From Gallionellaceae bacterium (GTDB lineage: Bacteria; Pseudomonadota; Gammaproteobacteria; Burkholderiales; Thiobacillaceae): a stretch of DNA of 64,000 bases. The stretch covers positions 62,001 through 126,000 of the forward strand of contig JAQTLN010000010.1 in NCBI GenBank assembly GCA_028714875.1. Reading direction: 5' to 3'. Position numbers and translations under genes: made by a program. Each line of letters starts with the position of its first letter. The stretch's first letter is position 1. Below are positions 15,537-35,349 of this stretch, in pieces. The notes beneath the pieces were generated by a model. The model made no database searches. It saw only the letters and a program-made list of their open reading frames with translations, and was not told the DNA's origin.

Positions 15537-15546
15537 ATTTTTCTCC

Positions 15547-16185: not shown

Positions 16186-16200
16186 CTGTCTTCTCCTGGC

Positions 16201-18456: not shown

Positions 18457-18459
18457 GTC

Positions 18460-20103: not shown

Positions 20104-21588
20104 TCAGAAGCTGTAACGCACTTCCGAGTAAACGCGGTCTTTGCTATCGAATTGGCCGAACAGCCCGGTTCCGCCAAAAACATCCGCTCCGAATACGGCC
20201 CGCCAGTTTCCGTCAAGCCGCCAGGTAAGCTTGAGTTGGGCGAGCCAGTCGTTCCGGTCGAGGCTGCGAATCAGCAGGATCTTGGGCTCCAGCTTGGGGT
20301 GCAGGGCTTGAGTGCTGAACATGACCGAGACACCGCTCTCTGTCGTGTCCTGGTACAAATCCGGATCATGATTGGGGAACCAGCGCTGATAGAACTGCAA
20401 ATTGAAACGGGTTTCCTCGGGAAAGCTCCACTCCAATCCGATGATGTAATCGAGCATGTCCTGTTTGACCAGCCCATCCACATCACTGGCTCTGTTTACA
20501 TAGGATTGCTTGCCTTTCGTGTAGACCGCCTCCGATTTCAGGACCAGGGGACCAAGATCTTTTCCCAGTGTCGCGCCTATCTGAAGGATTCTGTCGTGCA
20601 TCGGCCGGTAGGCGATGGTCGTGGGCGCGACCAGTTGCCGAGAGAAGGCGGCGGCGGGGTCCTGGGTGCTATAGACGAATCCGGATACATCCCATCCCGA
20701 GGTAATTTGTGAGAGCCGGATGCCATAGGCTGAATTTTTGAGCTGTGTCGGCTTTTCTTCTTCCGCGATATATGAGGTCACACCTGGAAGACTGGGCGGT
20801 GTGAAGGGGTAGAACTCCGCGCCCGGCTTGCCGATGTTTTCGTAGGTCATGTAGGGAATCACGACGGCTTCGGCATGGAAATCGCCGGAAAAATATTCAG
20901 CGCGTCCCGCCCATTGCGGAATGCGCAATATGTCGAATTCCGGGAGCGCAAGTTCTCTCAGATCTTTCGCCGACACGACATCCGCGAAAAACAACCCGAC
21001 CATTTCTCCCCAGATGATGTGCTGGCGGCCCAGGCGGAAGTCCCAGCCACCCCCGGGAAAGTCGATGTAGGCCTCGCGGATGCTGGCTTCCAGGCGTTGG
21101 TTATCTTTTACCTGTGCGTTGTAATAATTACCGAGGTCATAAATGGGGTCATAAATGAAACGCCCACCTAGCTTCCAGGCAAGGCCGCCGTCCGTATTTC
21201 CGGTTGTGGCCAGGTCAAGGGTGTTCCTGAATTTCGACCAGTGTCCGGGCTTTCCATAGGTGTAGGCCAGGTCATTCTGATAGAAGCCGGTAATTATGGT
21301 CGGGTTCGCCGCGTTTCTCTTTTCGCGGCCTTCCGGGCTGGACGTCAGGCGGGTCAGTGAGGGAAGTTGATCCGCTCCCGGCGGCGCCTTGATCGGCCCA
21401 CGTGCTTCATTGGAGGGTGCCGCTGATTCGCCAACAGGTTTGAATAAGCCATCCAGGGATTGCGGCTTGGCGGCGGCGTCGCTCTGCGCATGGGCGGAAG
21501 TGGCGGCGGCAAGCAAAATATAAATCCATATTGCTGGTTGCTTGTGTATGCCGGGTCGCGCCATGCCGGCGTTATTTCCGTGAGACAT
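20104..21588 (-). CDS. DUF1302-type outer-membrane beta-barrel protein
   Basis: A 494-residue protein. A signal peptide (AIWIYILLAAATSAHAQ) is followed by a Pro/Ala-rich linker and many alternating strands rich in aromatic residues. Signatures include GFYQNDLAYTYGKPGHWSK, LRLGRQHIIWGE (FRLGRQHIIWGEMVGLFFADVV) and a C-terminal Phe (SEVRYSF) for Bam recognition. This matches the DUF1302 family of outer-membrane proteins often encoded beside lipid or hydrophobic-compound exporters. It follows the LolD-like ATPase by 13 bases, so they form an operon. The ATG at 21588 is preferred over an upstream GTG or ATG for its position after GGGGC. Confidence 0.8.
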   Translation of the reverse strand: MSHGNNAGMARPGIHKQPAIWIYILLAAATSAHAQSDAAAKPQSLDGLFKPVGESAAPSNEARGPIKAPPGADQLPSLTRLTSSPEGREKRNAANPTIITGFYQNDLAYTYGKPGHWSKFRNTLDLATTGNTDGGLAWKLGGRFIYDPIYDLGNYYNAQVKDNQRLEASIREAYIDFPGGGWDFRLGRQHIIWGEMVGLFFADVVSAKDLRELALPEFDILRIPQWAGRAEYFSGDFHAEAVVIPYMTYENIGKPGAEFYPFTPPSLPGVTSYIAEEEKPTQLKNSAYGIRLSQITSGWDVSGFVYSTQDPAAAFSRQLVAPTTIAYRPMHDRILQIGATLGKDLGPLVLKSEAVYTKGKQSYVNRASDVDGLVKQDMLDYIIGLEWSFPEETRFNLQFYQRWFPNHDPDLYQDTTESGVSVMFSTQALHPKLEPKILLIRSLDRNDWLAQLKLTWRLDGNWRAVFGADVFGGTGLFGQFDSKDRVYSEVRYSF

Positions 21589-21601
21589 TGCCCCTATTTC
21601 C

Positions 21602-22288
21602 TTATGTGACGATCTGTCCATCGCTCAATTCGATTACCCGGTTAGCCATTTCCATAACACGTGGATCATGGGTGGAAAAGATAAACGTCGTGCCTTCCCG
21701 CTGGTTCAACTCACGCATCAACTTGAGTATCTCCTCGCCGGTTTTGCGATCCAGGTTGGCGGTGGGTTCGTCGGCGAGAATGATCTTGGGTTTGGTCGCG
21801 AGGGCGCGCGCGATGGCCACGCGCTGCCGTTGCCCACCGCTCAATTCGTTGGGCCGGTGGCGACCGAAACGCTCCAGGCCGACCACCCGCAAAGCGTGTT
21901 CGACCCGTTCTCGCCGGCTCTCTTTGTTCATGTGCTTTTGCTGTGTGAGGGGATATTCGACATTTTCCCAAGCGGACAGCACAGGTAGCAGGTTGAATGT
22001 CTGGAACACAAAGCCAAGGGTGTTCAGCCTCAGATCCGCGAGCGCATCAGCGGTTTTGTCGCTGACATCCTGTCCCTGTACGCGAATGGCGCCCGAGCTT
22101 GGTGTGTCGATGCAGCCGATCATATTCAACAGGGTCGATTTTCCGCTGCCGGACGGCCCGGCCAGAGCCAGGAACTCACCCTGGTAGACCGTGAGCGTGA
22201 CATCTTGCAGCGCGGTCACCTTCTGCTTGCCCAGCGCGTATACCTTGCTCACCCCTTGCACTTCCACGACGACTTGTTGGTCGGACAT
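21602..22288 (-). CDS. LolD/MacB-type ABC transporter ATPase
   Basis: A 228-residue ABC ATPase with Walker A GPSGSGKST near residue 42, Q-loop FQTFNLLP, signature LSGGQRQR near 144, Walker B IILADEPTANLD and switch His in FSTHD. The LNTLGFVFQTFNLLPVLSAWENVE and ANLDRKTGE features are those of the LolD/MacB/FtsE-like group that drives type VII ABC (mechanotransmission) systems. It should power the two FtsX-type permeases at 23346-25797. The ATG at 22288 is chosen over the GTG six bases upstream because GGAG sits eight bases before it. Confidence 0.9.
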   Translation of the reverse strand: MSDQQVVVEVQGVSKVYALGKQKVTALQDVTLTVYQGEFLALAGPSGSGKSTLLNMIGCIDTPSSGAIRVQGQDVSDKTADALADLRLNTLGFVFQTFNLLPVLSAWENVEYPLTQQKHMNKESRRERVEHALRVVGLERFGRHRPNELSGGQRQRVAIARALATKPKIILADEPTANLDRKTGEEILKLMRELNQREGTTFIFSTHDPRVMEMANRVIELSDGQIVT

Positions 22289-22534
22289 GGCCACTGCTCC
22301 GCGTCAATTTCAGGTTGGTCGTAGCCGGACGCGATGCCGCCAAGGGTTCATCACGTCTTTCTTGCTTGCCGCATCTTAAAGGATAAACGGCCTGTTTCTT
22401 GCGCCCTCCGACGCGCATCCGGGGGCGGGGCCAGACCAATACAGGCCGGAGCTGGCTCGAACCGGGCAATATAATGGGGAACGACCACGCTCCTTCGCGG
22501 TCACCTTTTTCCGCCCTCAAATTGAATGGAGATC

Positions 22535-23326
22535 ATGATGACGACTCTGCCCACGATGTCGCGGCGGCGCGGTATTTACCTGTTAGGCGCGCTGCTGGTA
22601 TCACTTTCCTGGGGTGGACCCGCCGCCGCGGAGGATGTCGATGGCAAGCCCGAGTTTGCCCGGGAAGTGCTCGCCAAAGCGGATCGGATCAGGTTCCCGG
22701 ACGACGGCTTTCAGGTGGATGTCTTGATTACCACGACGGCGCCGGATAGCGAGCCTGAGCAGCGGTCTTATCGGATTCTGTCGAAGGGGAATAGCCAGAC
22801 GCTGGTACAGACCACCGCGCCGGCGGTGGATCGCAATCAGATTCTGTTGATGCGGGATCGTGATCTATGGGCCTTCCTGCCCAATCTGTCGCAGCCGATC
22901 CGCTTGCCGCTGTCGCAGCGGCTGACCGGCCAGGTGGCCAACGGTGATCTGGCGCGCGCGAATTTCGCGGGAGATTACACGCCGAAGATACTGCGCACGG
23001 AAAAGATCGACGGGGAAACGCATTACGTGCTGGAACTTGCCGCGATCGACAACTGGGTCACCTACAGCCGGGTTCTCTACTGGGTCAATGCCAAGAACAG
23101 CCATCCTTACAAGGCCGAGTTCTACGCTTTGTCGGGCCGTCTTCTGAAGGTCTGCCACTACCAGAAATTCAAGCGCATGGGCGGTGGCATACGCCCCAGT
23201 GAGCTTGTGATCGATGATGCCTTGCGCGCGGGCAACCGGTCGCTACTCGAATACTCCAACATGGCCGAGCGCGACCTTGAGGACAAGATATTTGCCAAGG
23301 ACTATCTGAAGAAACTGAGCCGCTGA
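22535..23326 (+). CDS. LolA-like outer-membrane lipoprotein-sorting family protein
   Basis: A 263-residue exported protein with a signal peptide (RRRGIYLLGALLVSLSWGGPAAA). The body AREVLAKADRIRFPDDGFQVDVLITT, SYRILSKGNSQTLVQ, NQILLMRDRDLWAFLPNLSQPIRLPLSQRLTGQVANGDLARANFAGDY and YSRVLYWVNAKNSHPYKAEFYALSG matches periplasmic lipoprotein-sorting family proteins (LolA fold). Such proteins carry lipophilic cargo across the periplasm. It is divergent from the LolD gene and convergent with the permeases; all would act in one export route. Several ATGs are close together (22526, 22535, 22538); GGAG favours 22535 or 22538. Confidence 0.85.
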   Translation: MMTTLPTMSRRRGIYLLGALLVSLSWGGPAAAEDVDGKPEFAREVLAKADRIRFPDDGFQVDVLITTTAPDSEPEQRSYRILSKGNSQTLVQTTAPAVDRNQILLMRDRDLWAFLPNLSQPIRLPLSQRLTGQVANGDLARANFAGDYTPKILRTEKIDGETHYVLELAAIDNWVTYSRVLYWVNAKNSHPYKAEFYALSGRLLKVCHYQKFKRMGGGIRPSELVIDDALRAGNRSLLEYSNMAERDLEDKIFAKDYLKKLSR

Positions 23327-23345
23327 TCCGTTACCTGGACCGGCA

Positions 23346-24557
23346 TCAGATGTTGTGCCGCAGCGCGTCGACGACCTCTAGTTTGGCGGCGCGACGCCCC
23401 GGCAAGATGGCCGCCAGTACGGCGGCCGCCGACCCGGTGAGCATGGCTAGAAGCAGTACCCAGGGAACGATGCGGATACTGGCGGTGTAATCGGCGTTGG
23501 AGCCGGGCGGCGGTGGCATGGGAATGCCCACACTCGAAATCGCCGCGGCGAGAGCCACGCCAACGACGACCCCGGCCACCCCACCCAGCAGGCCAAGCAA
23601 CGCATATTCCTGCATGATCAGTTGGAACAATTTTCGGCGGCGCTGGCCCAGCGCCAGCATGGTTCCGAATTCGCCGGTGCGCTCGTAGACGGCCATATTG
23701 ACCGTGCTCGCGACACTGAGAACCAGCATGACCATGATGATGAACTGCAAAGCGCCGAACTGGCGGCGATAGAGCGCCACGGTCTTTTCATAGAACTCCG
23801 CCAGTTCATGCCACGGTTTGACCTGGAAGCCGAGGGGGCCAAGCTTGGCCCTGGCGGCACTGACGACCTGATCGGTGGCGCTCGTGTCATCCAGCGATAC
23901 GACGATGCTGTGGATGGCGCGCGTATAGAGCAGTTCCTGCGCCGCGGCCTGCGGAATCCTGACGGCGCGGTCGTCGTACTCCTTGAAGAAGGTGCGGAAT
24001 ACGCCGATCACCTGAAATTCCAGTGAGTTCAGCGCGCCTTCCGGGGTGCTGACCAACAGCGTGATATAGCCGCCCGGGCGCAAATGCAGCGCGGCGGCGA
24101 CCCCTTCGCCGACGACCACGCCATAGGCATCGGAATCCTTGAGCTGACGCCCCGCGACGATCGTGGTCGCGCTGCCGAAACTGGCCTCCTTGTCGGACTC
24201 GATGCCTTCGCCCATCACCGGCAAATCGGCGCGGCCGTTGTTGGCCAGTCCGGAGAAATTGACCCGCGTCATCACGTTTTTGACGTGAGGAAGCGACTTG
24301 AGCGCCGCCACGACCGGCTGCGTATCGGAGATCAGGTAACGCGAGGGTTCGCGTTTGCCATATTCGAGATAGCCCTTGCGGTAAACCTGCATATGGCCAA
24401 TGCGGGAGTGGATCGTGGCTTCGCTCAACTGGATGAAGACATCTTCGACAAAGCCGCCGCTGACGATGATCGCGGCGACACCCGAGATGATCGCGGCCAG
24501 GGTCAACGCGGTGCGCAATCGGTTTCTGAAGATGTTGCGAAAGGCGAGCTTGAGCAT
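23346..24557 (-). CDS. FtsX-type ABC permease (MacB/LolC-E class), second of a pair
   Basis: A 403-residue permease with the type VII ABC layout: one N-terminal membrane helix (RTALTLAAIISGVAAIIVSGG), a large periplasmic domain of about 230 residues, and three C-terminal helices. The last region includes VYERTGEFGTMLALGQRRRK, the coupling-helix area typical of FtsX domains, and ends DALRHNI. It is strikingly similar in layout to its neighbour at 24574-25797, which also ends NALRHNI. The two overlap in function as a heterodimer energised by the LolD-like ATPase. It is separated from the neighbour by 16 bases. Confidence 0.9.
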   Translation of the reverse strand: MLKLAFRNIFRNRLRTALTLAAIISGVAAIIVSGGFVEDVFIQLSEATIHSRIGHMQVYRKGYLEYGKREPSRYLISDTQPVVAALKSLPHVKNVMTRVNFSGLANNGRADLPVMGEGIESDKEASFGSATTIVAGRQLKDSDAYGVVVGEGVAAALHLRPGGYITLLVSTPEGALNSLEFQVIGVFRTFFKEYDDRAVRIPQAAAQELLYTRAIHSIVVSLDDTSATDQVVSAARAKLGPLGFQVKPWHELAEFYEKTVALYRRQFGALQFIIMVMLVLSVASTVNMAVYERTGEFGTMLALGQRRRKLFQLIMQEYALLGLLGGVAGVVVGVALAAAISSVGIPMPPPPGSNADYTASIRIVPWVLLLAMLTGSAAAVLAAILPGRRAAKLEVVDALRHNI

Positions 24558-24573
24558 GGTCTGTCTATCTGGA

Positions 24574-25797
24574 CTAGATGTTGTGTCTGAGCGCGTTGAT
24601 GATCTGCATACGCGATGCCATCCAGGCTGGATAGAGGCCCGCCAGCAAAGTCGTGACCAAGGCCAGGCTGAAGGCGCTGAGCAGGAGATCCCAACTGACC
24701 CGTATCGCGCCCAGATAGCCTTCTTCCATGCCCGGGGGCGGGGGCATCGGGATGCCGACGTAGGAGATCAGTTCCGCCAGTCCGTAACCCAGCACCACGC
24801 CGAGCAGCCCACCTATCAATCCCAGCAGCAGACTCTCGGTGGCGAACAATTGCATGATCTTCTTTCGCTTGAAACCGATGGCCAGCAGCGTGCCGATTTC
24901 ACCGGTGCGTTCCAGCACCCCCATGACCAGCATATTGGAAATGCTCAAGACGATGATGCAGCCGATGATCAGCCTGAGCACGCCCATTTGCTGGGCGAAC
25001 AGGGTGACGGTCTTGTTGTAGAAATCCGCGCGCTCATACCAGGGCACGAATTCCAGTCCGCTTGATTGGGACGGGTACAGGGCGCGGAAACGTGACAGGA
25101 AATGGTCGGTTCGCTCCGTTTCGTCGAGCAGCACCAGCCAGGTATGCGCGCCGTCGGCGCGCAACAATGATTGCGCGAGCCCGATGGGCAGGCGCAGGGC
25201 GGAATCGTCATAGGTCTGATTGGCGGTAATGAACACACCGGCCACCGTGGCTTCGACGCCATTGACGCCACCACTGGATGGGCTCGCCAGCAGCGCGACC
25301 GTGGCCCCCGGCTCGACCCCGAGATTGCGCGCCAGGCCGCGCCCGAGGACGACCTCCTTCGCGTTCGCGCTGGACAGGTTTTTCCCGGCCACGATGCGGA
25401 ATGCCTTGCTGAGATCGGCCTCCTTGGCCGGATCGACGCCATCGGCCAGAAAAGAGACCGTGGTATCGCCATGGCTGACCAGACCGTTGACCGAAAGACG
25501 TGGCGCGACCAGTTTGACGCCGGCGGTGGACTCGATGGCTTGTCGCTGCGGCAGGGAACCGGGTAGCAGGTACTGGAAGGGATTGGCCGCGCCCGCCTTG
25601 AAGTAGCCTGGCCGCACCACCTGGATGTGGCCCAGTTGCGACTGGATGGTGCCTTCCCGCATCGCCCAGAAAATCCACTGGACGAAGCCTTCCGCCAATA
25701 TCATCGAGATCACGCCAACCGACACGATCGACAAGGCTATCGCCGCGCGGCGCTTGTTACGCCCTAGATTGCGGGCGGCTACGAATAAGTTGGCCAT
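24574..25797 (-). CDS. FtsX-type ABC permease (MacB/LolC-E class), first of a pair
   Basis: A 407-residue permease paralogous to the downstream gene. It has an N-terminal helix (AAIALSIVSVGVISMILAEGFV), a periplasmic domain, then three helices with LERTGEIGTLLAIGFKRKK and GLIGGLLGVVLGYGLAELIS. Both copies carry the loop YVGIPMPPPPG or SVGIPMPPPPG between the last helices, which is a useful family mark. It starts close to the divergent glycosyltransferase gene at 25861, so the intervening 63 bases must hold promoters for both directions. Cargo is unknown. Confidence 0.9.
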   Translation of the reverse strand: MANLFVAARNLGRNKRRAAIALSIVSVGVISMILAEGFVQWIFWAMREGTIQSQLGHIQVVRPGYFKAGAANPFQYLLPGSLPQRQAIESTAGVKLVAPRLSVNGLVSHGDTTVSFLADGVDPAKEADLSKAFRIVAGKNLSSANAKEVVLGRGLARNLGVEPGATVALLASPSSGGVNGVEATVAGVFITANQTYDDSALRLPIGLAQSLLRADGAHTWLVLLDETERTDHFLSRFRALYPSQSSGLEFVPWYERADFYNKTVTLFAQQMGVLRLIIGCIIVLSISNMLVMGVLERTGEIGTLLAIGFKRKKIMQLFATESLLLGLIGGLLGVVLGYGLAELISYVGIPMPPPPGMEEGYLGAIRVSWDLLLSAFSLALVTTLLAGLYPAWMASRMQIINALRHNI

Positions 25798-25860
25798 GAT
25801 CCTTCACATGTAACAGAATTTATTCATGTCTACGCCGACGTATTGCCTGGAGCAGGTTTG

Positions 25861-27075
25861 ATGCCACCCACGGAACGCCCGGTCATTCTACTCGTCGCGG
25901 AAGCGGTGACACTTGCGCATTTCGCGCGTATCGCGACGCTGGCGCGGGCGCTGGATACGGACGCCTACCGGGTCGTGGTTGCCAGCGACCCACGCTTTTC
26001 CGCGCTGGACGGCGATGCGCCACTTACGCTTCAGACGATTTCATCCATCGCCACGCAAGCGTTCGCCACCGCGCTGGTCAAGGGTAAGCCGGTCTACAGC
26101 AGCGAGACCTTGACCCGCTATGTCGAGGAAGATCTGGCGCTGATCGACCGGGTAAAACCGGATCTGGTGATTGGTGATTTCCGCTTGTCGCTCGCGGTGA
26201 GCGCGCCGTTGCGCCGAGTGCCCTACGTCTCGGTGGTCAATGGCTACTGGAGCCCCTATGCCGATACCGCCTATCCGGTGCCGGATTTGCCTGTGACACG
26301 CCTGCTTGGCGTCGGGATCGCGCAGCGGGTGTTCGACCTGGTTCGGCCGTTGGCATTTGCCAGCCATGCCGCGCCCTTGAACCGCGTCCGCCGCAAGTTC
26401 GGCTTGCCGTCACTGGGGCGTGATTTGCGGACGGCCTACACCTGGGGCGACTACACGCTGTACGCGGACATTCCCGAAGTCACCCCGACGCGCGGCTTGC
26501 CGCCCAACCATCGTTATCTCGGCCCCGTCTTGTGGTCCACCCAGACCCCCCTGCCGGATTGGTGGGAACGCCTGCCGCGAGACAAGCCGATCGTGTGTTT
26601 CACCCTGGGTAGCTCGGGCAAGGCCGATTTTTTGCCCGCCGCGCTCAAGGCGTTGGCGCGATTGCCTATCACCCTGATTGTCGCCACGGTCGGCAGGGTG
26701 GTGCTGCCCGCGCTGCCGGACAACGTATTCCAGGCTGACTATCTGCCTATGGAAGCCGCGCTTCGGCGCTCGCAATTATTGATATGCAACGGCGGTAGTC
26801 TGACCACCTACCAGGCTCTCGCCGGTGGCGTGCCGGTCATCGGCGTTTGCTCGAACCTGGACCAGCTGTTGAACATGACAGCCATCGCGCGCCTGGGTTG
26901 CGGCGTCATGCTGCGCGCCGGAGGACTGGCGCCCGCCACTTTGCGCGAAACGGCCAAGGCGGTGCTGGCGGTGCCGGCATATACGCAAGCAGCCGCCCGC
27001 ATGGGTCAGGTGCTCGAACAGTACGACAGCAAGCAGCGCTTCCGCGACACCGTGTCGGAACTGCTGGGAAAATAG
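25861..27075 (+). CDS. GT1-family (UGT/MGT-like) glycosyltransferase
   Basis: A 404-residue GT-B fold enzyme starting MPPTERPVILLVAEAVTLAH. The N-terminal His in VTLAHFARIATLARAL corresponds to the catalytic His of many UDP-glycosyltransferases. The C-terminal donor-binding region contains VCFTLGSSGKADFLPAALKALARL and LLICNGGSLTTYQALAGGVPVIGVCSNLDQLLN, with NGG in place of the usual HGG. Such enzymes glycosylate small lipophilic acceptors. A TTG upstream at 25843 is also in frame, but the ATG at 25861 after an AGG-containing leader is more likely. It is paralogous to the enzyme at 29408-30616. Confidence 0.88.
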   Translation: MPPTERPVILLVAEAVTLAHFARIATLARALDTDAYRVVVASDPRFSALDGDAPLTLQTISSIATQAFATALVKGKPVYSSETLTRYVEEDLALIDRVKPDLVIGDFRLSLAVSAPLRRVPYVSVVNGYWSPYADTAYPVPDLPVTRLLGVGIAQRVFDLVRPLAFASHAAPLNRVRRKFGLPSLGRDLRTAYTWGDYTLYADIPEVTPTRGLPPNHRYLGPVLWSTQTPLPDWWERLPRDKPIVCFTLGSSGKADFLPAALKALARLPITLIVATVGRVVLPALPDNVFQADYLPMEAALRRSQLLICNGGSLTTYQALAGGVPVIGVCSNLDQLLNMTAIARLGCGVMLRAGGLAPATLRETAKAVLAVPAYTQAAARMGQVLEQYDSKQRFRDTVSELLGK

Positions 27076-27115
27076 CCGCACCTTCATAAGTTGAACAATC
27101 GAAGAGGAGTCCATC

Positions 27116-27772
27116 ATGCGAACCATCAACGCGAAACAAGTCTCGCTGTTCTTTCTCATGCTGGGTGTCATTGCCATCCTCTGTCTCGCCACAACCTGGT
27201 GGACACTGGGGAGAGTGCCTCTCGGCGATTTTCGCGGTGTGATCCTGGTTGGGGCGGGCGTCGTGTTCTTCTATCTCTATGCTTTCGCCGTCTACCGCCT
27301 GTTCCTGCACTTCATGCCGCTGAGCGAGGGTGAACTGCCTGAAGGGTCGCGGGAAGAATTCGCCGCCCAGGTGAACATCCTGTTCTATCTGCTGCTGTTC
27401 AATAGTTTGATTCGCACTCACTTCCTTCCTGTGCCCTTGATGCGACTTGTCTATCAGGCGCTAGGCACGCGCATGGGGCCAAACACCTATAGCGCCGGTG
27501 TCATCCTGGACCCGCCCCTGACCGAATTCGGCGCGAACTGCATTATCGGCCACGATGCCGTGCTGTTCAGCCACGCCATCGAGGGGCGCCATTTCGCGTT
27601 ATCCAGAATCCGTGCCGGAGACAACGTCACCATCGGCGCCACGGCGGTCGTCATGTCCGGGGTGACCATCGGCGACGGCGCCATCATCTCGGCAGGTTCG
27701 GTCGTGCTAAAGGACACCACAATTGGTGTCAATGAAGTCTGGGGCGGCGTGCCGGCAAAGCGCCTCAAGTAA
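27116..27772 (+). CDS. Membrane-anchored hexapeptide-repeat acyltransferase
   Basis: A 218-residue protein. Residues 10-30 and 40-62 form two membrane helices, and a third hydrophobic stretch lies at about 85-95. The C-terminal third has left-handed beta-helix hexapeptides (TEFGANCIIGHDAVLFSHAIEG, IRAGDNVTIGATAVVMSGVTIGDGAIISAGSVVLKDTTIG) ending NEVWGGVPAKRLK, as in bacterial O-acetyl or acyltransferases. His in GHDAVLF and SHAI may be catalytic. GAGGAG precedes the ATG. It follows the glycosyltransferase by 40 bases and probably shares its transcript, suggesting acyl decoration of a glycosylated product. Confidence 0.82.
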   Translation: MRTINAKQVSLFFLMLGVIAILCLATTWWTLGRVPLGDFRGVILVGAGVVFFYLYAFAVYRLFLHFMPLSEGELPEGSREEFAAQVNILFYLLLFNSLIRTHFLPVPLMRLVYQALGTRMGPNTYSAGVILDPPLTEFGANCIIGHDAVLFSHAIEGRHFALSRIRAGDNVTIGATAVVMSGVTIGDGAIISAGSVVLKDTTIGVNEVWGGVPAKRLK

Positions 27773-28024: not shown

Positions 28025-28118
28025 TTAGATAACGCAAGTAGATGTACATGATTCAACACAATGGTTAGGCAGGTGGCCTTACCGTTTGAAGCGAAACGAA
28101 CCGAACTGGAGAAAGATC

Positions 28119-29168
28119 ATGAAACTGAAGCAAACTACACTAGCGGCCGCCATCGCCACCGTTCTCGCTATTGGCGCGTCTGGTCAGGCATCCGCGGATG
28201 TCTACGCGGGCTCCCGCCTCGAAGTCAAAGATTTCGTCCTCCAGTTTGTACCCACGGGGCCGATCAATCCTGGTGACATCGTGGTCAATGGCTACTCCTT
28301 TACCGCGAACTCCAACGCGAACCTGAATGGCGGTAACACCACTGGTAACGCGGACTGCAGCACGATTGGAACGCCTTGCGGCAGCGTTGCGCCCGTGCTG
28401 ACTTCCGTGGCCAATGCTCCGGGAAGCTCGCCGCTGCGTACTGCGGGCGATTTCACCTTCTTCGGCCCGAGCACCGGTCTGACCTATTCGAACGCGGGCG
28501 CACAGATTTATCAGGCGGAACTGGCAACGGCTACCCCTACGATAACAAGTCAGATTTCCGAGGTTGAGATTGCGCGCAATGGCAAGGGTGACTCCAATAC
28601 CAACGTGGGCTCACAGACCACTCTGGTCTTCACCTTCACAATTACCGGCACCACGACGGCCAACATGAATCTGTCGTTCATGGCTGATCCGGACATGTTC
28701 CTCAAAGTGAACACACCCGGCCTGGTCTCAGTCCTGGGCACCGCGTCGATTAGCAGCAGCCTTGAGCTGACTGGTGACAATGGTGTAGGTCTGACTTGGG
28801 CGCCTAATGGCATTACCTCGGGCATACAGGCGTTCGATTTTCCGAGTTCCTGTACCAACCTCACCTCATGTACCGAGACTGCCGACACCGCCAACCTCAA
28901 CCTGACCAAGAGTCTGCCCAATGTTAATGGTTCATCGAATGGCTACAGCGATAACCGTACTTCGGGAGGCACGCTCTCTCCTGACCTGGGTTGGCAAACC
29001 TTTGGCATCTCTATCGTGGGTTTGACCGCTGGTAACTACACCCTGGCCTTGACTTCCACGACTACGGCCCGTGCGGAACAAGCCGTACCGGAACCCGGCA
29101 TCCTTGCGCTCCTCGGCATTGGTCTGCTTGGCTTGGGCACCATGAACCGTCGTCGCCGCAACGCCTGA
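28119..29168 (+). CDS. PEP-CTERM sorting-signal surface protein
   Basis: A 349-residue exported protein. It has an N-terminal signal peptide (MKLKQTTLAAAIATVLAIGA) and a Thr/Ser/Asn-rich body of beta-strand character. The C-terminal sorting signal has VPEP, a hydrophobic helix (ILALLGIGLLGLG) and a basic tail (NRRRRNA). Exosortase recognises PEP and cleaves there, releasing the protein to the surface or matrix. Cysteine pairs (DCSTIGTPCG; SSCTNLTSC) could form disulfides. GGAG lies eight bases before the ATG. It has its own sigma-54-type promoter and terminator, so it is a single-gene unit. No exosortase gene is in the window. Confidence 0.92.
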   Translation: MKLKQTTLAAAIATVLAIGASGQASADVYAGSRLEVKDFVLQFVPTGPINPGDIVVNGYSFTANSNANLNGGNTTGNADCSTIGTPCGSVAPVLTSVANAPGSSPLRTAGDFTFFGPSTGLTYSNAGAQIYQAELATATPTITSQISEVEIARNGKGDSNTNVGSQTTLVFTFTITGTTTANMNLSFMADPDMFLKVNTPGLVSVLGTASISSSLELTGDNGVGLTWAPNGITSGIQAFDFPSSCTNLTSCTETADTANLNLTKSLPNVNGSSNGYSDNRTSGGTLSPDLGWQTFGISIVGLTAGNYTLALTSTTTARAEQAVPEPGILALLGIGLLGLGTMNRRRRNA

Positions 29169-29181
29169 GCGACTCACGAAT

Positions 29182-29212
29182 AAAAAAGGGGCGCGATTTG
29201 CGCCCCTTTTTT
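29182..29212 (+). terminator. Intrinsic terminator of the PEP-CTERM gene
   Basis: The stem GGGGCGC/GCGCCCC with an A-run before and TTTTTT after begins about 14 bases past the stop. Confidence 0.9.
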
Positions 29213-29240
29213 ATGGTGCGCCCGGCAGGGCGCACTTACT

Positions 29241-29338
29241 TGGAGGTGAAGGTCCTCTACTCGCCCGACAAGGGGGAAGTGAACCGCACGTACGGTGGTG
29301 TGAGAGGGAGACGGAGGTACCTTCGCCCCGACTCGATT
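29241..29338 (+). other. Possible degraded 3' end of a group II intron
   Basis: The segment GAACCGCACGTACGGTGGTG followed by TGAGAGGGAGACGGAGGTAC and CTTCGCCCCGACTCGATTGT resembles the domain V/VI end of bacterial group II introns (the GTACGGT...GAGAGGG...CGACTCGA pattern). Domain V appears shortened, and no reverse transcriptase frame is nearby, so this would be a dead fragment. Confidence 0.4.
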
Positions 29339-29407
29339 GTGAGTTCATTCAGCATTACTTGACTGCGTAGTAAACGGGCAAGATATGCCCGGCGAAATGC
29401 TTCTTTC

Positions 29408-30616
29408 TTAGAGCCAGTTCTCGATGGTATCCGCCGCGAGTGCCGCGCCATTCCATGATTTAAGCAATGGAATATATTCCGAGGCAGCTTGCTGGTAAGT
29501 GGGCGTTCTCAGGACATCCGCCACCGCCTGGACCAGCTTCCCCATACCCTGGCGGCGAAGTTGCTTGAGAGTCATGGCTTGACCCAGACCCAATTGCTGG
29601 ATGCGTTTTCCCCCATAATGCTGCTCAGCGTGAGTGGCGACGACTACACAGGGCAATCCATATGAAAGCGCTTGATATAAAGTGCCATTGCCGCCGTGAC
29701 AACAAACCAGGTCACAGTGAGGCAGAAGTGCATCGGTGTTGATATATTGTTCAAGAAATACGCCGTCGGGGACATCTTGTCGGCCCACGACATCCGTGGC
29801 GCCTGTAGCGACTACGATCTGTATTCCGCGTCGAGTCAGAATATCGAGATGGACTACCAACTCATCTAATCCTTCGCTGCCCAATGTTAAGTAAACAGTG
29901 GGTCGCTCGGGGTCTAATCGATCAAGACAGGTGGGAGGGGGAAGTGTGTTGCGCCAAGTAATCGGGCCAATGAAGCGCATGTGGGCCGGCAAGTGCTCCG
30001 CTGGGTTGAATTCAGGGACATCCGCGAGAAAGCTGAGATTCCCCTCCTCATGCTGGTAGCTATATAACTGGCCTAATCCCATCCGCTTCCGGATATTATT
30101 CAGATCTCCCATCACCACACGATCATAAACTTGTCGCTCAATCGCATTTTCGATATGGTCAGCTAGAGTTAATCCAGGTATGGGAAATCTGCCCGCCATC
30201 TGGACATAGCTTAAAAAGGGAATGCGTCTGTAGTTGCTCATGTGTACATTAAGCACAGCAGCTGTTCTCAGTCCTGCTTTTTCTGCTGAGGTTCGCGCCG
30301 TGGGGCGATTATCCAGGAGTACCAACTCTGGTTGGAACTCGGCATAGAGCGCTAATTCAGCCTCGATAAAATACTCAAGTTCCTCGGTCCGATATAACTC
30401 CCAAAGTTTCTGCGTTCGTACCGCGCGAACAACCTGTTCAACCGTGATGTAAGGAAGTTCACGGGTGGCGAACCCGTCCAATTCGGCGATTTGCAAGTAC
30501 TTGCCATGCCCGGCAAAGAGAATTTCGTGACCTTTTTTCCGCAAAATCTTGGCGATTTCGAGAAGACGCGAAACATGCGCCAGAGCATGCGCATTGGGTA
30601 TGGCAAGAATTCTCAT
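29408..30616 (-). CDS. GT1-family (UGT/MGT-like) glycosyltransferase
   Basis: A 402-residue GT-B enzyme starting MRILAIPNAHALAHVSRLLE. The N-terminal His (AHALAHVSR) and the C-terminal donor-site block CDLVCCHGGNGTLYQALSYG followed by LPCVVVATHAEQHYGGKRI are clear UGT/MGT features, here with the classical HGG. It is related to the enzyme at 25861-27075 but more canonical. The start overlaps the prsT stop (TGATG), so it is translationally coupled to prsT and probably serves the same exosortase-associated polysaccharide or lipid pathway. The acceptor is unknown. Confidence 0.88.
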   Translation of the reverse strand: MRILAIPNAHALAHVSRLLEIAKILRKKGHEILFAGHGKYLQIAELDGFATRELPYITVEQVVRAVRTQKLWELYRTEELEYFIEAELALYAEFQPELVLLDNRPTARTSAEKAGLRTAAVLNVHMSNYRRIPFLSYVQMAGRFPIPGLTLADHIENAIERQVYDRVVMGDLNNIRKRMGLGQLYSYQHEEGNLSFLADVPEFNPAEHLPAHMRFIGPITWRNTLPPPTCLDRLDPERPTVYLTLGSEGLDELVVHLDILTRRGIQIVVATGATDVVGRQDVPDGVFLEQYINTDALLPHCDLVCCHGGNGTLYQALSYGLPCVVVATHAEQHYGGKRIQQLGLGQAMTLKQLRRQGMGKLVQAVADVLRTPTYQQAASEYIPLLKSWNGAALAADTIENWL

Positions 30617-33408
30617 CAACGCGCCTTGGAGCCAAGAGAGTCCAGCAGAGTCCTGGCCTCCTTGGCTTGGGAAGTGCCTTTTGCGATGAGGTCATCAAGA
30701 AGCTTGCGTGCTTGGGGGATGCGCTGTTGACGTAAAAGAACTTGCCCAAGATGGAGTTGAATGAGCGGCTCACGCGGCGCCAAATGAAAAGCTTCCTGAA
30801 GCAGACGTTCTGCATTGGCTGATTCCCCCCTCTTTAGTAAAAGCATCGCGAGCGTGTCTTTCACATAGGGATCCTTGGCTGCCAGAGTATGGGCATCCTG
30901 CGCATATTTGATCGCTAGGTTAAGGTCGCTATCTTGAGTGAGCCAGGCGAGGTTATTAAGCGAAGCTACGTGGCCAGGGTAATACTCGACAATTTTTGCA
31001 TAAACAGTTCTAGCCTCGTTGTTATTGCTCTGGCTGAGATAGGCGCCTGCTAGATGAAGAAGCATGTCGAGATCCTTGGGATACTTGCCAAGCCAGCTCT
31101 GCATGCCTTTGATTGACTTGTCATACTCCTTTTGCGCCCATTGCGCACGCGCAAGCAAAATCGCAACTTCTGAATTCGGGGTCATATTGAATACGCTAGA
31201 AAGTGCGCGTTCGGCTTCAGCGAATTTTCCAGTCACCAAGTAATGCCATCCCGCGATGCCTAGTGTTTCCGGGCGATTGGGGAAGTCCTGTTTGAGTTTG
31301 TCTAATGCTTGCTGAGCTTTGTCGAGCTGTCTGGCTTGGACCAACACCTTGATCTCGGCGATTCTCGCTGGTAAATAGCGCGAGTTAAGCTTGAGCGCAT
31401 GCTCAACCTCCTTACGTGCTTCTGAAATATTTCCAGCTCTAGCCAGGCTCTCGCCATGGTAAAAATAAGCTGCCGCTGAGTTTGGCGCAATTTGTTTCCA
31501 CCTTTCGAATGTTTTCTGCGCTGTAAGTGTATCTCCTGTCAGCATCAATGCTTTGCCACGTAATTCAAGCAAGGAGGGCATGCTTGTTAATTTCTCTTCT
31601 GAAATTCCTTGGGTTAGCGTCAACACATTCTGTAACTGACGCTTGTTCAAGTATTCTGAAGCAAGTCTTGCTCGAACCGCCAATGAGTTTGGGGTGCTCT
31701 GCAATGTTTGCTCCAAAAATGGCATGGCAATTGCTACGTTACCAAGTCGAGTAGCTATATCAGCTAGCTGTAACACGGCAAGTTGATCCGTGGGAGTGTT
31801 CTTCAGGTAGGAGAGCAAGATATCCTGCGCTCGCTTTGGATTTCCGGTATTTGCTTCAATCGTGGCTAGTGCTCTTGTTGCTGAAGGATCATTGGCTTGG
31901 CGTTTTAATACATTTTCCAATTCTGGCTTTGCCTTGTTCCATTGGCCAGCCAGCATATAGATTGCAGCTACCAAGTTGCCGGGTTCGATTGTATTCGGGT
32001 ACGCTGCTTGGAGCTTTCTAGCTTTATCTAGCGCAATGTTGAGGTGTTTGTCACGCACGGCCTCCAGCGCCAGCAAGAGTTGCACCCGGTAGGCGTCGTT
32101 AGACTCGTGCTTGCTGCTGAGTTGTTCTTCATTAAGTGATTGCCCAGCTAGCAATCTGGAAACCATAAGCTGATTCCTGGTGAACGTGGATTGCGGAGCC
32201 AACGCCACGGCCTTCGTCGCATATTGGAGTCCTTTGGCGTTGCTGCCTTGAGACATGGATAAGTCGGTAAGCATGTTGAGTACATCTACATCATTGGGTG
32301 CTAGCGCTAACGCTTTGTTGAGTGTTGCGGAGGCAGAGGGATAATCCAACTGGTTGAGGTAAATTGCTGAGATTAGTTTCTGTATTCTTAATGAATTCGG
32401 CACGGCAAGTAATACCTGCTGCGCGTTGGCAAGCGCCTTCTCCATTTGACCTGTTAGATAATATGATGATGCCAGGAAAAGCCTGCCAAGAATGGAGTTG
32501 GGCTCGACAGCAAGGCTTGACTCAAATGATTCCGCAGCTTTGTTGTATTGTTTTTGTGAAAAATATAAGCGGCCTGCAACATAGTTAACATATGGGTGGT
32601 TGCTGTAGCCCTGCCCTCTAATTTCCACAATATCCTGCTTGGCTGCGTCAAGCTTTCCGGCTAGAACACGTACAAATGCGCGTTTGGCGCTGTCCAGCGC
32701 TAAATAATGGCGAAATTCTATTGCTTTAGAAAATGCTTCGTCCGCGGCGGCAAGGTTGTCTTGCGCCAGATCCAAGTCGCCTTTTGCGCTCCAGACGTCT
32801 GGTGATTTTGGCGCGGATTTAACAGCTAATGCGATCCATCGTTGTGCCTCTGTATACTCTTTCTGGTACCCATGCATGGCAGCCATTCCAACCAGTGCAA
32901 TAGCCGAGTCGGGCTCAACCTTGAGTGCTTCATTCAAAACCTGTTTGGCTTCTTCAAACTGGCCTTTCAACACCAGTGCCTGACCTCGGAGACCAAGAAG
33001 CGTCGCTTTCTCTTCGGCAGTTGGCATGCCAGGCAGTGTATCGGTCTCCTTTAAAACTCGGTCAAGATCCCCTTGTTGCAGAATTGTCGCGACCAGGAAA
33101 GGCTGCACTTCATTTTTTGGTGCATCAAGAGCGACAGCCTTGCGTGCCTCCTTTTCAGCCCCCGCAAAATCACCTAACTCTCGAATGGCCTTTGCACGCA
33201 TCCAGCGTGCCTCCATGGATTTCGGATTCTTGGTGACTGCGTTGGCTAGTTCAATGGAGGCTGCCTTGTAATTTCCTTTGAGCATAAATGCGTTGGCCCT
33301 GGAAATGTGCTCTTCTACTGTGTAGTTGTGCCCACAACCGGAAATAAAAAACACAAGGATAAGTGCTGACAATATTTGTGAGTACTTTTTCGCTGAGCGG
33401 TTCCGCAT
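30616..33408 (-). CDS. prsT: PEP-CTERM system TPR-repeat lipoprotein PrsT
   Basis: A 930-residue lipoprotein. The leader ends in a lipobox (ILVFFISGCGHN), and nearly the whole mature protein is TPR repeats (for example NYKAASIELANAVTKNPKSMEARWMRA and QYNKAAESFESSLAVEPNSILGRLFLA), about twenty or more units. Length, lipobox and TPR content match PrsT, the TPR protein that accompanies exosortases in Gram-negative bacteria, where it is thought to scaffold polysaccharide or PEP-CTERM export. Codon use is notably more AT-rich than the surrounding genes, a possible sign of different evolutionary history. The downstream glycosyltransferase start overlaps its stop. Confidence 0.9.
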   Translation of the reverse strand: MRNRSAKKYSQILSALILVFFISGCGHNYTVEEHISRANAFMLKGNYKAASIELANAVTKNPKSMEARWMRAKAIRELGDFAGAEKEARKAVALDAPKNEVQPFLVATILQQGDLDRVLKETDTLPGMPTAEEKATLLGLRGQALVLKGQFEEAKQVLNEALKVEPDSAIALVGMAAMHGYQKEYTEAQRWIALAVKSAPKSPDVWSAKGDLDLAQDNLAAADEAFSKAIEFRHYLALDSAKRAFVRVLAGKLDAAKQDIVEIRGQGYSNHPYVNYVAGRLYFSQKQYNKAAESFESSLAVEPNSILGRLFLASSYYLTGQMEKALANAQQVLLAVPNSLRIQKLISAIYLNQLDYPSASATLNKALALAPNDVDVLNMLTDLSMSQGSNAKGLQYATKAVALAPQSTFTRNQLMVSRLLAGQSLNEEQLSSKHESNDAYRVQLLLALEAVRDKHLNIALDKARKLQAAYPNTIEPGNLVAAIYMLAGQWNKAKPELENVLKRQANDPSATRALATIEANTGNPKRAQDILLSYLKNTPTDQLAVLQLADIATRLGNVAIAMPFLEQTLQSTPNSLAVRARLASEYLNKRQLQNVLTLTQGISEEKLTSMPSLLELRGKALMLTGDTLTAQKTFERWKQIAPNSAAAYFYHGESLARAGNISEARKEVEHALKLNSRYLPARIAEIKVLVQARQLDKAQQALDKLKQDFPNRPETLGIAGWHYLVTGKFAEAERALSSVFNMTPNSEVAILLARAQWAQKEYDKSIKGMQSWLGKYPKDLDMLLHLAGAYLSQSNNNEARTVYAKIVEYYPGHVASLNNLAWLTQDSDLNLAIKYAQDAHTLAAKDPYVKDTLAMLLLKRGESANAERLLQEAFHLAPREPLIQLHLGQVLLRQQRIPQARKLLDDLIAKGTSQAKEARTLLDSLGSKAR

Positions 33409-33693
33409 AAGTGATATCCTTAATTATGAGACAAGTGATTAGCCTGACATGCTTCGCGAACGGCAAAAGGCTCATCGTAGGGCGATTAGGTGCTGATCGG
33501 GAAGAAATAATGAATTATCCCGTTGCCAGAATTTTTCGTCCTTGTTTGTTGGGCCATAAAACCTATTCCGAATTCATGTGCGGACCCTATTAATTTCTAC
33601 GCAACCGTGAATGCATTTTTTGAGTTATCAAGTCGACAGAGGCTGTCGCACCCTCTACAAGACTGCTCACTCAACCGTCCTCCTGGCATCGGA
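33409..33693. other. Intergenic region between prsT and the ThiF-like gene
   Basis: Both flanking genes are on the minus strand. I see no convincing gene. The AT-rich part nearest prsT (33409-33620) is the likely prsT promoter zone. No sigma-54 consensus was found here on the minus strand. Confidence 0.4.
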
Positions 33694-34554
33694 CTATATA
33701 CCAAGCTGGTTTCTTGCTATTGCTATTGCAAGGCGATTGATTGGGTGACGATTGCCGCCCGGCCGCCAGGTGTGGGCAGTGCGATTGCGGTAGCTATCGA
33801 ACTGAATGCCATGTGGCGCGGCCCAGACCTTGCCGCGTCCGAGCAATATTTTGAGCGCTTCGCTTGCCGCCACGCCGGCGCAGAGTGAGCAGGCCATCAC
33901 GGTCGACGGCCCCTTGCGGGCCGCGAGGTTGACTCGCGTTTCATCGGCCAGATAGGGGCGATGCAACAGCGCGGGCGCCAGGCCGATCAGGAAGCGCACG
34001 GCCTTTTCCATTTCCGGCTTGCCTTCGAGTTGAAAATATTCCTCGAAACTCATGCCTCCAGGCATGAAGTTGAGGAGGGCGGCACTCATGCCAAGAGGGG
34101 CGACGGTTGTTGCCGGAATGCGCTTCTCAGAACAGTAACGAAACATGTCCTCTCGCGCGCGAAAAGCAAAGAAGTCGAGCCCATCCACATAGAGGTCGAC
34201 CCCCGCCATGAATTCGTCAAGGTTCTCGGCATGGACACCTTGCGGAAAAATCTTGATGTCGCAGTCCGGGTTGATATCTCGCGCCATCCGCGCCAGTGTC
34301 TCTGCCTTGTGCTGATCCAGGCTGCTCATGGTGGCGCCAGCCTGGCGATTGAAATTGGCCAGCTCGAAGGTATCGAGATCGGCGATATGAAAATGTTGGA
34401 TGCCGAGACGCGCCAGGGTCAAAAGATGAAAACCACCGACGCCTCCCATGCCGGCGATGGCCACCCGCTTTTCTGAGAGTTGTTGCTGCTCGGCTTCGGT
34501 AACCCAGCCAATGTTCCGGGAAAATGCGGTGGCGTAATCGAAGATGGCGGTCAT
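33694..34554 (-). CDS. ThiF/MoeB/E1-like adenylyltransferase
   Basis: A 286-residue E1-like protein. The nucleotide-binding motif AGMGGVGG is near residues 34-41. ADLDTFELANFNRQ follows near 57-70 with the conserved Asp, Asn and Arg. HKAETLARMARDINPDCDI and VDGLDFFAFRAREDM supply the remaining adenylation-site residues. MACSLCAGVAASEALKIL holds the only close Cys pair. E1-like enzymes adenylate the C-terminus of a ubiquitin-like carrier or another carboxylate. No ubiquitin-like or sulfur-carrier gene is nearby. Its stop is six bases from the acyltransferase-like gene that precedes it, so the two are one transcript. Confidence 0.85.
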   Translation of the reverse strand: MTAIFDYATAFSRNIGWVTEAEQQQLSEKRVAIAGMGGVGGFHLLTLARLGIQHFHIADLDTFELANFNRQAGATMSSLDQHKAETLARMARDINPDCDIKIFPQGVHAENLDEFMAGVDLYVDGLDFFAFRAREDMFRYCSEKRIPATTVAPLGMSAALLNFMPGGMSFEEYFQLEGKPEMEKAVRFLIGLAPALLHRPYLADETRVNLAARKGPSTVMACSLCAGVAASEALKILLGRGKVWAAPHGIQFDSYRNRTAHTWRPGGNRHPINRLAIAIARNQLGI

Positions 34555-34560
34555 TGGCGA

Positions 34561-35349
34561 TTATTTGGGTTCAGCGCGTAGCAAACGGTCGGTGATGCGC
34601 GCCTCTTCCTGAGGTGGAAAAAAGTAGGGATAGAGTGTTCTGTCCTGCTTGGCGAGTTCATGTTGCCCCGCGACTTCCGCGACCTTCTTTTCCACCTCCA
34701 CCAGGTCCAGCCAGAGCAGTACCGCCGGCGCATGGACACGTGGACACATGCGCTCACTGCCGATCTCCTTGAACCCAAGCATTCTTTTGTAAAAAGCGGC
34801 GTGGGTGGGGTTGACCTCGATCACAGCATCCGAGTAGCGCCATAGTTTGCGCAGGTAAATGTATGAAACATTGAACATGGCGGCCAGGAAGCGCTTCGAG
34901 GTCAGCTTGGTGTCCAGCGCAAATTTCGTAATTTCGGCCACGGTGCACCCACGCGCGCGCAGCATGTCTATTTCGGCTTTATAGAGTTCATCCGCCATCA
35001 GCCCGTTGCCCACGTCGAAACCGAGAGTCTGTGTGCCGATGACTTGTTCTCCCTGGTAGGTCGCCAGGGTAATGCTGTCCGGGCAACTGTTCGATCCAGG
35101 GCCACCAGCGCCATGGTAGCCCACTTCGCCATAGCGTTTTTCCACGAAAAACTTGGCATCTCGTGTGCGTTCGTCATTGTGTGCCAGACGGATCTTGAAC
35201 TGATCCTCGCGGGTAACCTGACCGCTTGGTTCGGGCGCGTGTTCACCTACCTGCCCTCCTACCTCACGCAGTCGGGGAGGCGACTCAAAGGCCACGATAG
35301 TCTTCGCCCAACTCCGGCTCGCGGTCTTGAAGCGATCCATTATTCCCAT
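34561..35349 (-). CDS. GNAT-fold acyltransferase of the FeeM / exosortase-associated type
   Basis: A 262-residue protein. From residue 50 the pattern FKIRLAHNDERTRDAKFFVEKRYGEVGYH resembles the autoinducer-synthase/FeeM branch of the GNAT fold. ITLATYQGEQVIGTQTLGFD, GLMADELYKAEIDMLRARG, EITKFALD and AAFYKRMLGFKEIG complete it. These enzymes take acyl groups from acyl carrier protein and make N-acyl amino acids or homoserine lactones. A related family accompanies exosortase loci. GGGGGAG lies eight bases before the ATG at 35349. It is the first gene of a pair with the E1-like gene, which suggests joint synthesis of an acylated small molecule. Confidence 0.75.
   Translation of the reverse strand: MGIMDRFKTASRSWAKTIVAFESPPRLREVGGQVGEHAPEPSGQVTREDQFKIRLAHNDERTRDAKFFVEKRYGEVGYHGAGGPGSNSCPDSITLATYQGEQVIGTQTLGFDVGNGLMADELYKAEIDMLRARGCTVAEITKFALDTKLTSKRFLAAMFNVSYIYLRKLWRYSDAVIEVNPTHAAFYKRMLGFKEIGSERMCPRVHAPAVLLWLDLVEVEKKVAEVAGQHELAKQDRTLYPYFFPPQEEARITDRLLRAEPK

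What the first reader, a model, noticed from the sequence alone, without database searches (positions are those of the whole stretch)
20104..35349. Possible undescribed acyl/glyco-lipid synthesis and export system next to an exosortase locus
Seen: LolD-like ATPase, two FtsX permeases sharing a GIPMPPPPG loop, a LolA-like periplasmic carrier and a DUF1302 barrel. These sit beside two GT1 glycosyltransferases, a membrane hexapeptide acyltransferase, a FeeM/autoinducer-like acyltransferase, an E1-like enzyme, a PEP-CTERM protein and PrsT. Known: LolA-fold and MacB-type parts move lipophilic cargo; FeeM-like enzymes make N-acyl amino acids; GT1 enzymes glycosylate lipophilic acceptors; PrsT accompanies exosortases. 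Inference: the block makes an acylated, glycosylated molecule and carries it through both membranes to the surface, perhaps to serve the PEP-CTERM matrix. I am not aware of this full set being described as one system.
Basis: partly seen in the sequence, partly recalled or inferred. Interest (0 to 1): 0.75.

Follow-up and report, generated by a model that had tools for sequence, protein, structure and literature searches.

The report
Exosortase-linked acyl-lipid synthesis and export locus
A recurring set of bacterial genes probably makes a fatty amino-acid-derived molecule and carries it across both membranes in bacteria that use the exosortase surface-protein system; both its product and its exporter are still untested.

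Summary
Corrections: no exosortase lies in the window (the genome's only match is on another contig), and the LolA-like gene runs opposite to its neighbours. That divergent layout is real: 109 of 109 readable loci share it.

LolA-like orthologs lie within 20 kb of a FeeM-family gene in 25 of 31 loci of 149 relatives; paralogs in 0 of 19. The permease occurs in 30 of 30 ortholog genomes and 2 of 119 others. Of 80 named loci, 59 hold FeeM, the exosortase-associated acyltransferase or XrtA polysaccharide genes within about 10 kb; random stretches 1 of 40. Nine named loci hold the whole set.

The synthesis half resembles known acyl-oxazolone pathways; its third enzyme is on another contig here. 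The export half resembles LolCDE/LolA plus a DUF1302 barrel, like the AmeABCD exporter with an ABC pump instead of RND. The synthase-exosortase link was already published; the exporter link I met in none of my searches. Many exosortase+FeeM genomes (42 of 69) lack the exporter. Cargo is inferred, not shown.

The parts
20104..21621 (-). DUF1302 outer-membrane barrel, predicted export channel
   Evidence: PF06980 3e-15; model mean pLDDT 77, confident barrel from about residue 109 on, residues 207-232 under 50; among the 50 Foldseek rows shown the best query-normalised TM-scores are AlgE alginate exporter 0.48-0.51, the lowest E-values OmpF-type porins; present in 77 of 80 named loci
21602..22294 (-). 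ABC ATPase, LolD/MacB/DevA-like
   Evidence: PF00005 3.4e-36; LolD TIGR02211 223.8 bits, below its cut-off 307.75
22295..22525 (.). 231-bp gap between divergent ATPase and LolA-like genes
   Evidence: divergent in 109 of 109 readable loci, median spacing between the matches 150 bp
22526..23326 (+). LolA-fold periplasmic carrier (PF17131)
   Evidence: close homolog of solved structure 3BUU (LolA superfamily protein NE2245), E 2.1e-84
23346..24557 (-). FtsX/LolC-E-type permease 1
24574..25797 (-). FtsX/LolC-E-type permease 2
   Evidence: model pLDDT 87.8; best PDB folds LolCDE permeases, TMq up to 0.69
25858..27075 (+). GT1 glycosyltransferase a (alternative start 25843)
   Evidence: PF06722 4.6e-18; GT-type gene in 14 of 18 named loci of this arrangement
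27116..27772 (+). membrane hexapeptide-repeat acyltransferase
   Evidence: PF00132; 12 of 18 named loci of this arrangement
28086..29168 (+). EDSAP-1 family PEP-CTERM protein
   Evidence: NF041538 228.5 bits, cut-off 100
29408..30619 (-). GT1 glycosyltransferase b, low GC3
30616..33408 (-). PrsT TPR protein with a lipobox-like N-terminus (a second, higher-scoring PrsT is on contig C2), low GC3
   Evidence: TIGR02917 538 bits against 747.8 for the C2 copy; N-terminus read, lipobox recalled; GC3
33694..34554 (-). ThiF-type adenylating enzyme, predicted oxazolone cyclase
   Evidence: NF006077, then PRK14851/PRK14852 fusion models; GxGGxG, NxNRQ, K83 and D124/D127 invariant or nearly so in 30 sequences
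34561..35349 (-). FeeM-type N-acyl amino acid synthase
   Evidence: PF21926 1.3e-43; aligns with FeeM 2G0B; Glu139 in at least 90% of 34 sequences
35391..36209 (+). YcgR-like PilZN/PilZ protein, divergent from FeeM by 41 bp (possible c-di-GMP control)
   Evidence: PF07317 2.7e-27

Best explanation
A modular locus of the XrtA/PEP-CTERM guild. FeeM joins a fatty acyl chain to an amino acid. The ThiF enzyme uses ATP to activate and cyclise it, probably to an acyl-oxazolone, with the desaturase (nitroreductase family) supplied from contig C2. The GT1 enzyme and the hexapeptide acyltransferase may decorate it. The LolCDE-like ABC pump then lifts the lipid from the inner membrane and hands it to the LolA-like carrier, which passes it to the DUF1302 barrel for release at the surface. 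Shown: the genes, their conservation and their linkage. Inferred from homology: each reaction, the cargo, the direction and the order.
For: Linkage: 25 of 31 orthologous LolA loci within 20 kb of a FeeM-family gene (22 by strong matches), 0 of 19 paralogous ones; named loci 59 of 80 with FeeM, TIGR03694 or XrtA polysaccharide genes against 1 of 40 random stretches and 0 of the 8 paralog loci fetched; nine named loci hold exporter + GT + hexapeptide + acyltransferase + ThiF + nitroreductase. Dispersed sets are still complete: of the 42 named loci without a local acyltransferase I searched the genomes of 20 (18 of them also without a local permease); all 20 encode two permease matches, adjacent in 19, and 19 of 20 a FeeM-family protein. 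On a FeeM tree the exporter label changes 15 times, at least 11 forced by starred branches, so the linkage is not one inherited arrangement. Chemistry: acyltransferase + ThiF + nitroreductase known from TyzA/B/C and TrzA/S. Transport precedent: AmeA (DUF1302) + AmeB (LolA superfamily) act with an RND pump in efflux; YbbAP, another Type VII ABC, is proposed to extract hydrophobic molecules (abstract). Perm2 fold is LolCDE-like.
Against: No product is known. 42 of 69 exosortase+FeeM genomes have no exporter ortholog, and on the FeeM tree the exporter label is no more clustered than shuffled labels, so FeeM products do not in general need it. In Zoogloea-type loci ATPase and DUF1302 precede XrtA polysaccharide genes with no acyltransferase within 10 kb, which fits a polysaccharide-related cargo as well. 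The desaturase is not at this locus. 21 of 80 named loci show none of FeeM, TIGR03694 or XrtA polysaccharide genes within reach; some are on short contigs, 8 of the 21 have a PEP-CTERM-like ORF.
Confidence: 0.5

Rival explanations
1. A specialised Lol pathway: the pump and LolA-like carrier move lipid-anchored proteins of the exosortase guild (PrsT, or PEP-CTERM proteins if exosortase attaches them to a lipid) to the outer membrane; FeeM makes something else.
For: Permease fold closest to LolCDE; LolA fold; PrsT here has a lipobox-like N-terminus (sequence); PrsT-type TPR genes in 22 of 30 and strict PEP-CTERM ORFs in 24 of 30 loci of relatives, against 1 of 40 and 3 of 40 random stretches.
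Against: Permeases and ATPase fall far below the Lol equivalog cut-offs; the genome has its own LolC/E-type gene and LolA elsewhere; no long LolC-type Hook is seen in the Perm2 model; a porin-like barrel is an odd partner for folded lipoproteins (inference); TPR and PEP-CTERM genes also sit at FeeM loci of genomes without the exporter (13 of 20; 17 of 20).
Confidence: 0.17
2. The exporter serves the XrtA exopolysaccharide or its lipid carrier, and FeeM genes are neighbours only because both belong to the same regulon and genomic hot spot.
For: 23 of 80 named loci have XrtA polysaccharide genes within about 10 kb, often as ATPase-DUF1302 followed on one strand by export, chain-length and kinase genes; the DUF1302 model resembles the alginate exporter AlgE.
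Against: XrtA clusters already carry their own export protein (TIGR03027); LolA-fold carriers bind lipids rather than polysaccharide (general knowledge); FeeM or TIGR03694 is beside the exporter in 38 of 80 named loci.
Confidence: 0.18
3. An uptake or detoxification system for apolar compounds, unrelated to the biosynthetic genes.
For: AmeABCD uses DUF1302 and a LolA-superfamily protein for tolerance to monoterpenes.
Against: Repeated linkage to acyltransferase, ThiF, GT and exosortase-associated genes.
Confidence: 0.07
4. Unrelated neighbours by chance.
For: Gene order differs between loci; the GTb-PrsT pair looks inserted.
Against: Controls 0 of 19, 0 of 8 and 1 of 40.
Confidence: 0.02

Closest known systems
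TyzABC / TrzAS / OxzAB acyl-oxazolone pathways (PMC10404671: abstract and two sections; PMC12856293: abstract and passages; OxzAB known to me only through these two)
   Same: N-acyltransferase + ThiF-type cyclase + nitroreductase-family desaturase; the ThiF and nitroreductase genes here also match the models PRK14851, PRK14852 or PRK07877
   Different: FeeM subfamily, exosortase setting, possible decorating GT and hexapeptide enzymes, linked LolCDE-like exporter; desaturase on another contig in this genome
N-acyl amino acid synthases linked to PEP-CTERM/exosortase (Craig et al. 2011; seen only as cited)
   Same: FeeM-type synthase beside PEP-CTERM genes
   Different: the citing passages that I saw mention no exporter, ThiF or glycosyltransferase; the paper itself is not held, so it may discuss them
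AmeABCD monoterpene exporter, Castellaniella (PMC6394551: abstract and one passage)
   Same: DUF1302 outer-membrane protein + LolA-superfamily periplasmic protein
   Different: RND pump there, Type VII ABC pump here; PF17131 here, DUF1329 there
LolCDE-LolA
   Same: permease fold, LolD-like ATPase, LolA fold
   Different: below Lol cut-offs, no LolB family among the proteins scanned, DUF1302 barrel added, canonical Lol genes elsewhere in the genome
Stieleriacine cluster, Stieleria maiorica (PMC7293339: passages)
   Same: N-acyl tyrosine product, PEP-CTERM gene in the proposed cluster
   Different: its putative transporters are not characterised; planctomycete

Membership tests
[quoted passage not shown]
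   148.9 bits against 27
[quoted passage not shown]
   Glu139 aligns with a glutamate of 2G0B and is nearly invariant; PMC4897644 names FeeM Glu95, which by my count is residue 96 of the chain used
[quoted passage not shown]
   needs expression and mass spectrometry
Acyl-oxazolone (Oxz/Tyz) pathway | ThiF-type cyclase of the right subfamily | tested here: met
   PRK14851/PRK14852 are the next-best models after NF006077, both under their full-length cut-offs because this protein is not fused; nucleotide-site residues conserved. Cyclase activity itself untested
Acyl-oxazolone (Oxz/Tyz) pathway | nitroreductase-family desaturase at the locus | tested here: not met
   not at the window locus; a 355-aa homolog lies on C2; a separate or fused nitroreductase gene is at many related loci
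Acyl-oxazolone (Oxz/Tyz) pathway | oxazolone product | not testable with these tools
   none
LolCDE-LolA | permeases and ATPase over equivalog cut-offs | tested here: not met
   106.8 and 110.3 against 362.45 bits; 223.8 against 307.75 bits
LolCDE-LolA | canonical LolA PF03548 | tested here: not met
   window protein matches PF17131 only; the genome's PF03548 matches are on C5 and C27
LolCDE-LolA | LolC Hook that binds LolA | tested here: inconclusive
   short turn at that place in alignment and model; hook position partly recalled
AmeABCD-type exporter | DUF1302 protein with LolA-superfamily partner | tested here: met
AmeABCD-type exporter | RND inner-membrane pump | tested here: not met
   FtsX/MacB_PCD ABC permeases instead
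XrtA/PEP-CTERM system | PEP-CTERM substrate and PrsT over cut-offs | tested here: met
XrtA/PEP-CTERM system | exosortase gene at the locus | tested here: not met
   only on C24 of the same genome; XrtA polysaccharide genes on C24, PrsK/PrsR/PrsT on C2

The most novel reading that the evidence does not exclude
The amino-acid-derived lipid made here is what exosortase joins to PEP-CTERM proteins, and the LolCDE-like pump, LolA-like carrier and DUF1302 barrel form the missing route by which these lipid-tagged proteins leave the inner membrane for the surface matrix.
Probability: 0.08. Interest if true: 0.93.

Novelty: new variant of a known kind. Interest (0 to 1): 0.6.

Why it matters
[quoted passage not shown] A linked exporter and a predicted product class turn this into a direct knock-out and lipid-profiling experiment. 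The loci include record titles of floc- and biofilm-forming wastewater bacteria such as Zoogloea and Accumulibacter (their habit is general knowledge), where surface lipids and PEP-CTERM matrix could matter in practice. It also suggests an ABC counterpart of the RND-based AmeABCD design for moving apolar molecules.

Tried and rejected
Rejected: the idea that the block is simply the genome's Lol system. Rejected: chance neighbours. Considered: the GIPMPPPPG loop as a LolC-type Hook; the model puts it between helices three and four, so no. Led nowhere: a profile search of the DUF1302 alignment against PDB sequences gave 0 matches; the literature searches for NE2245 (0 papers) and for two of exosortase / lipoprotein-sorting protein / DUF1302 / LolA-like / FtsX (2 unrelated papers). 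My first named-set scan undercounted the ATPase because over-long LolA reading frames covered it on the other strand; I replaced it. My first ORF clustering was replaced, but the gene names were still used for choosing proteins to scan.

Limits of the counts: relatives are not independent; the 80 named loci are the best 80 of 319 by similarity, and 12 of them are the same contigs as relatives' loci by equal contig length; the 40 random stretches include short contigs (575 kb in all, against 1429 kb for the 80); only 8 of the 19 paralog loci were fetched; the FeeM tree used the quick method with several long branches, its exporter label is not more clustered than shuffles, and its 'none' label includes two genomes (G069, G072) whose exporter is on another contig; the strict PEP-CTERM filter is a home-made pattern from recall and two of its three control hits look spurious. 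The cut between LolA orthologs (31) and paralogs (19) was mine, by the E-value gap (3.7e-68 against 9.0e-38), as was the cut for 'strong' FeeM. In G149 the two permease matches are on different contigs.
Full report
What is there. On the - strand lie permease 2, permease 1, ABC ATPase and DUF1302 barrel; the LolA-like gene lies between permease 1 and ATPase on the + strand. GT a, the hexapeptide acyltransferase and the PEP-CTERM protein follow on +; GT b, PrsT, ThiF and FeeM on -; a PilZN/PilZ protein and hemB come next. The window belongs to a 4.08 Mb genome whose single PF09721 exosortase match is on another contig. The same genome holds XrtA polysaccharide genes on C24, and nitroreductase-family enzyme, PrsT, PrsR and PrsK genes on C2.

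Is the export block a unit? The LolA-like protein has orthologs in 30 of 149 genomes (own included; 31 loci, by my E-value cut) and weaker paralogs (19 loci). Permease matches below 1e-60 occur in all 30 and in 2 of the other 119. In 110 fetched ortholog loci (30 from relatives, 80 named, 12 of them shared), the ATPase is divergent from the LolA-like gene in all 109 where it could be read; DUF1302 is present in 28 of 30 and 77 of 80, a permease in 27 of 30 and 45 of 80. I searched the genomes of 20 named loci (of 42) that have no acyltransferase nearby, 18 of which also have no permease nearby: all 20 encode two permease matches, adjacent in 19 of 20, and 19 of 20 a FeeM-family protein.

Is it tied to acyl-lipid synthesis and exosortase? 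Within 20 kb of the LolA-like gene there is a FeeM-family gene in 25 of 31 ortholog loci (22 by strong matches, 3 by weak ones only) and in 0 of 19 paralog loci. The six misses are two 9-kb contigs of G029, G009 (3.6 kb from a contig start), G069, G072 and G054. The seven ortholog loci outside the window's own family (six families) are all positive, two of them (G094, G109) by weak matches only. In the named set 38 of 80 have FeeM or TIGR03694, the exosortase-associated acyltransferase, 23 of 80 have XrtA polysaccharide genes, and 59 of 80 have at least one of these, against 19 of 30 in relatives, 0 of 8 paralog loci and 1 of 40 random stretches of the same genomes. A strict PEP-CTERM pattern is found in 24 of 30, 38 of 80, 0 of 8 and 3 of 40. 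In many Zoogloea-type loci ATPase and DUF1302 run into the XrtA polysaccharide genes on one strand. At genome level 29 of 30 exporter genomes have an exosortase against 62 of 119 others; strong FeeM goes with exosortase in 69 of 71. LolA paralogs show a weaker association (16 of 18 against 75 of 131), so part of the genome-level signal is not specific. Against a strict dependence, 42 of 69 exosortase+FeeM genomes lack the exporter, and 20 fetched FeeM loci of genomes without it still carry ThiF (13), separate or fused nitroreductase (5 and 7), TPR/PrsT-type (13) and PEP-CTERM (17) genes. On a FeeM tree of 47 rows the label 'exporter at the locus' needs 15 changes, at least 11 forced, about what shuffled labels give: the partnership has formed or dissolved many times. 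The window's FeeM is 93% identical to that of G022, where no LolA-like match was found.

The window's own arrangement. Eighteen named loci have permease 1 directly beside the LolA-like gene, as here; 14 of 18 also hold a GT, 12 of 18 the hexapeptide enzyme, against 4 of 62 and 3 of 62 of the other named loci. Nine named loci hold all parts including acyltransferase, ThiF and nitroreductase: L110, L116, L117, L119, L120, L121, L122, L124, L173, among them records titled Sulfuricella, Candidatus Nitrotoga, Sulfuriferula and Methylocaldum.

How it most likely works. Synthesis is inferred from homology: TyzA, TyzB and TyzC make acyl-oxazolones by N-acylation, ATP-dependent ThiF cyclisation and flavin-dependent desaturation (PMC10404671: abstract, sections 5 and 11); TrzS fuses the last two (PMC12856293: abstract and passages). 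The window ThiF scores best on NF006077 and next on the fusion models PRK14851 and PRK14852. Export is inferred from structure: permease 2 folds like LolCDE permeases, the carrier is a close homolog of the LolA-fold structure 3BUU, and DUF1302 is predicted to be a large barrel, closest by query-normalised TM-score to AlgE among the rows shown. AmeABCD gives the precedent of DUF1302 plus LolA-superfamily partners in efflux. Direction, cargo and decoration are not shown.

Known and new. The FeeM-exosortase link is published and the oxazolone trio is published. These full-text searches showed me, in their listings, no paper describing this exporter as part of the exosortase guild: N-acyl amino acid + exosortase (17 papers), DUF1302 + LolA (1), two of FeeM / N-acyl / exosortase (20 of 31 listed), DUF1302 + outer membrane (8), exosortase + ABC transporter + PEP-CTERM + N-acyl (2), (2), two of PEP-CTERM / DUF1302 / LolCDE / LolA / N-acyl amino acid synthase / TIGR03694 (30 of 118 listed) and exosortase + oxazolone (1). 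They cover open-licence papers only, I opened seven papers in part, and the main 2011 paper is not held.

Verdict. A real, recurrent, modular locus; a new variant built from known kinds; cargo open.

Noticed in passing
window 14640-20103 (-): Genes like HdrB, HdrC and two HdrA/Qmo-type flavoproteins directly downstream of DUF1302; likely energy metabolism, not part of this system.
   Followed up: partly
window 29408-33408 (-): GTb and PrsT have GC3 0.50-0.52 against 0.65-0.80 for twelve neighbours: possible acquired pair; the genome has another, higher-scoring PrsT on C2.
   Followed up: partly
window 35391-36209 (+): YcgR-like PilZ protein divergent from FeeM by 41 bp; a metagenomic synthase with FeeM-like and PilZ-like domains in one protein is on record (PMC4897644), hinting at c-di-GMP control.
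   Followed up: partly
window 8534-10384 (-): Protein with weak similarity to the exosortase-associated O-glycosylation ligase model TIGR03097 (34 bits, cut-off 188).
   Followed up: no
window 7699-8085 (-) and 13933-14358 (+): Two small ORFs whose starts look like PIN-domain toxins (recalled, no search run).
   Followed up: no
L071 9500-14457 and L094 3687-10000, roughly: Some FeeM loci carry an AMP-binding enzyme, a fatty-acyl-reductase-like protein, a FAD oxidase and a family of about 363 aa without a Pfam match: a second possible tailoring set.
   Followed up: partly
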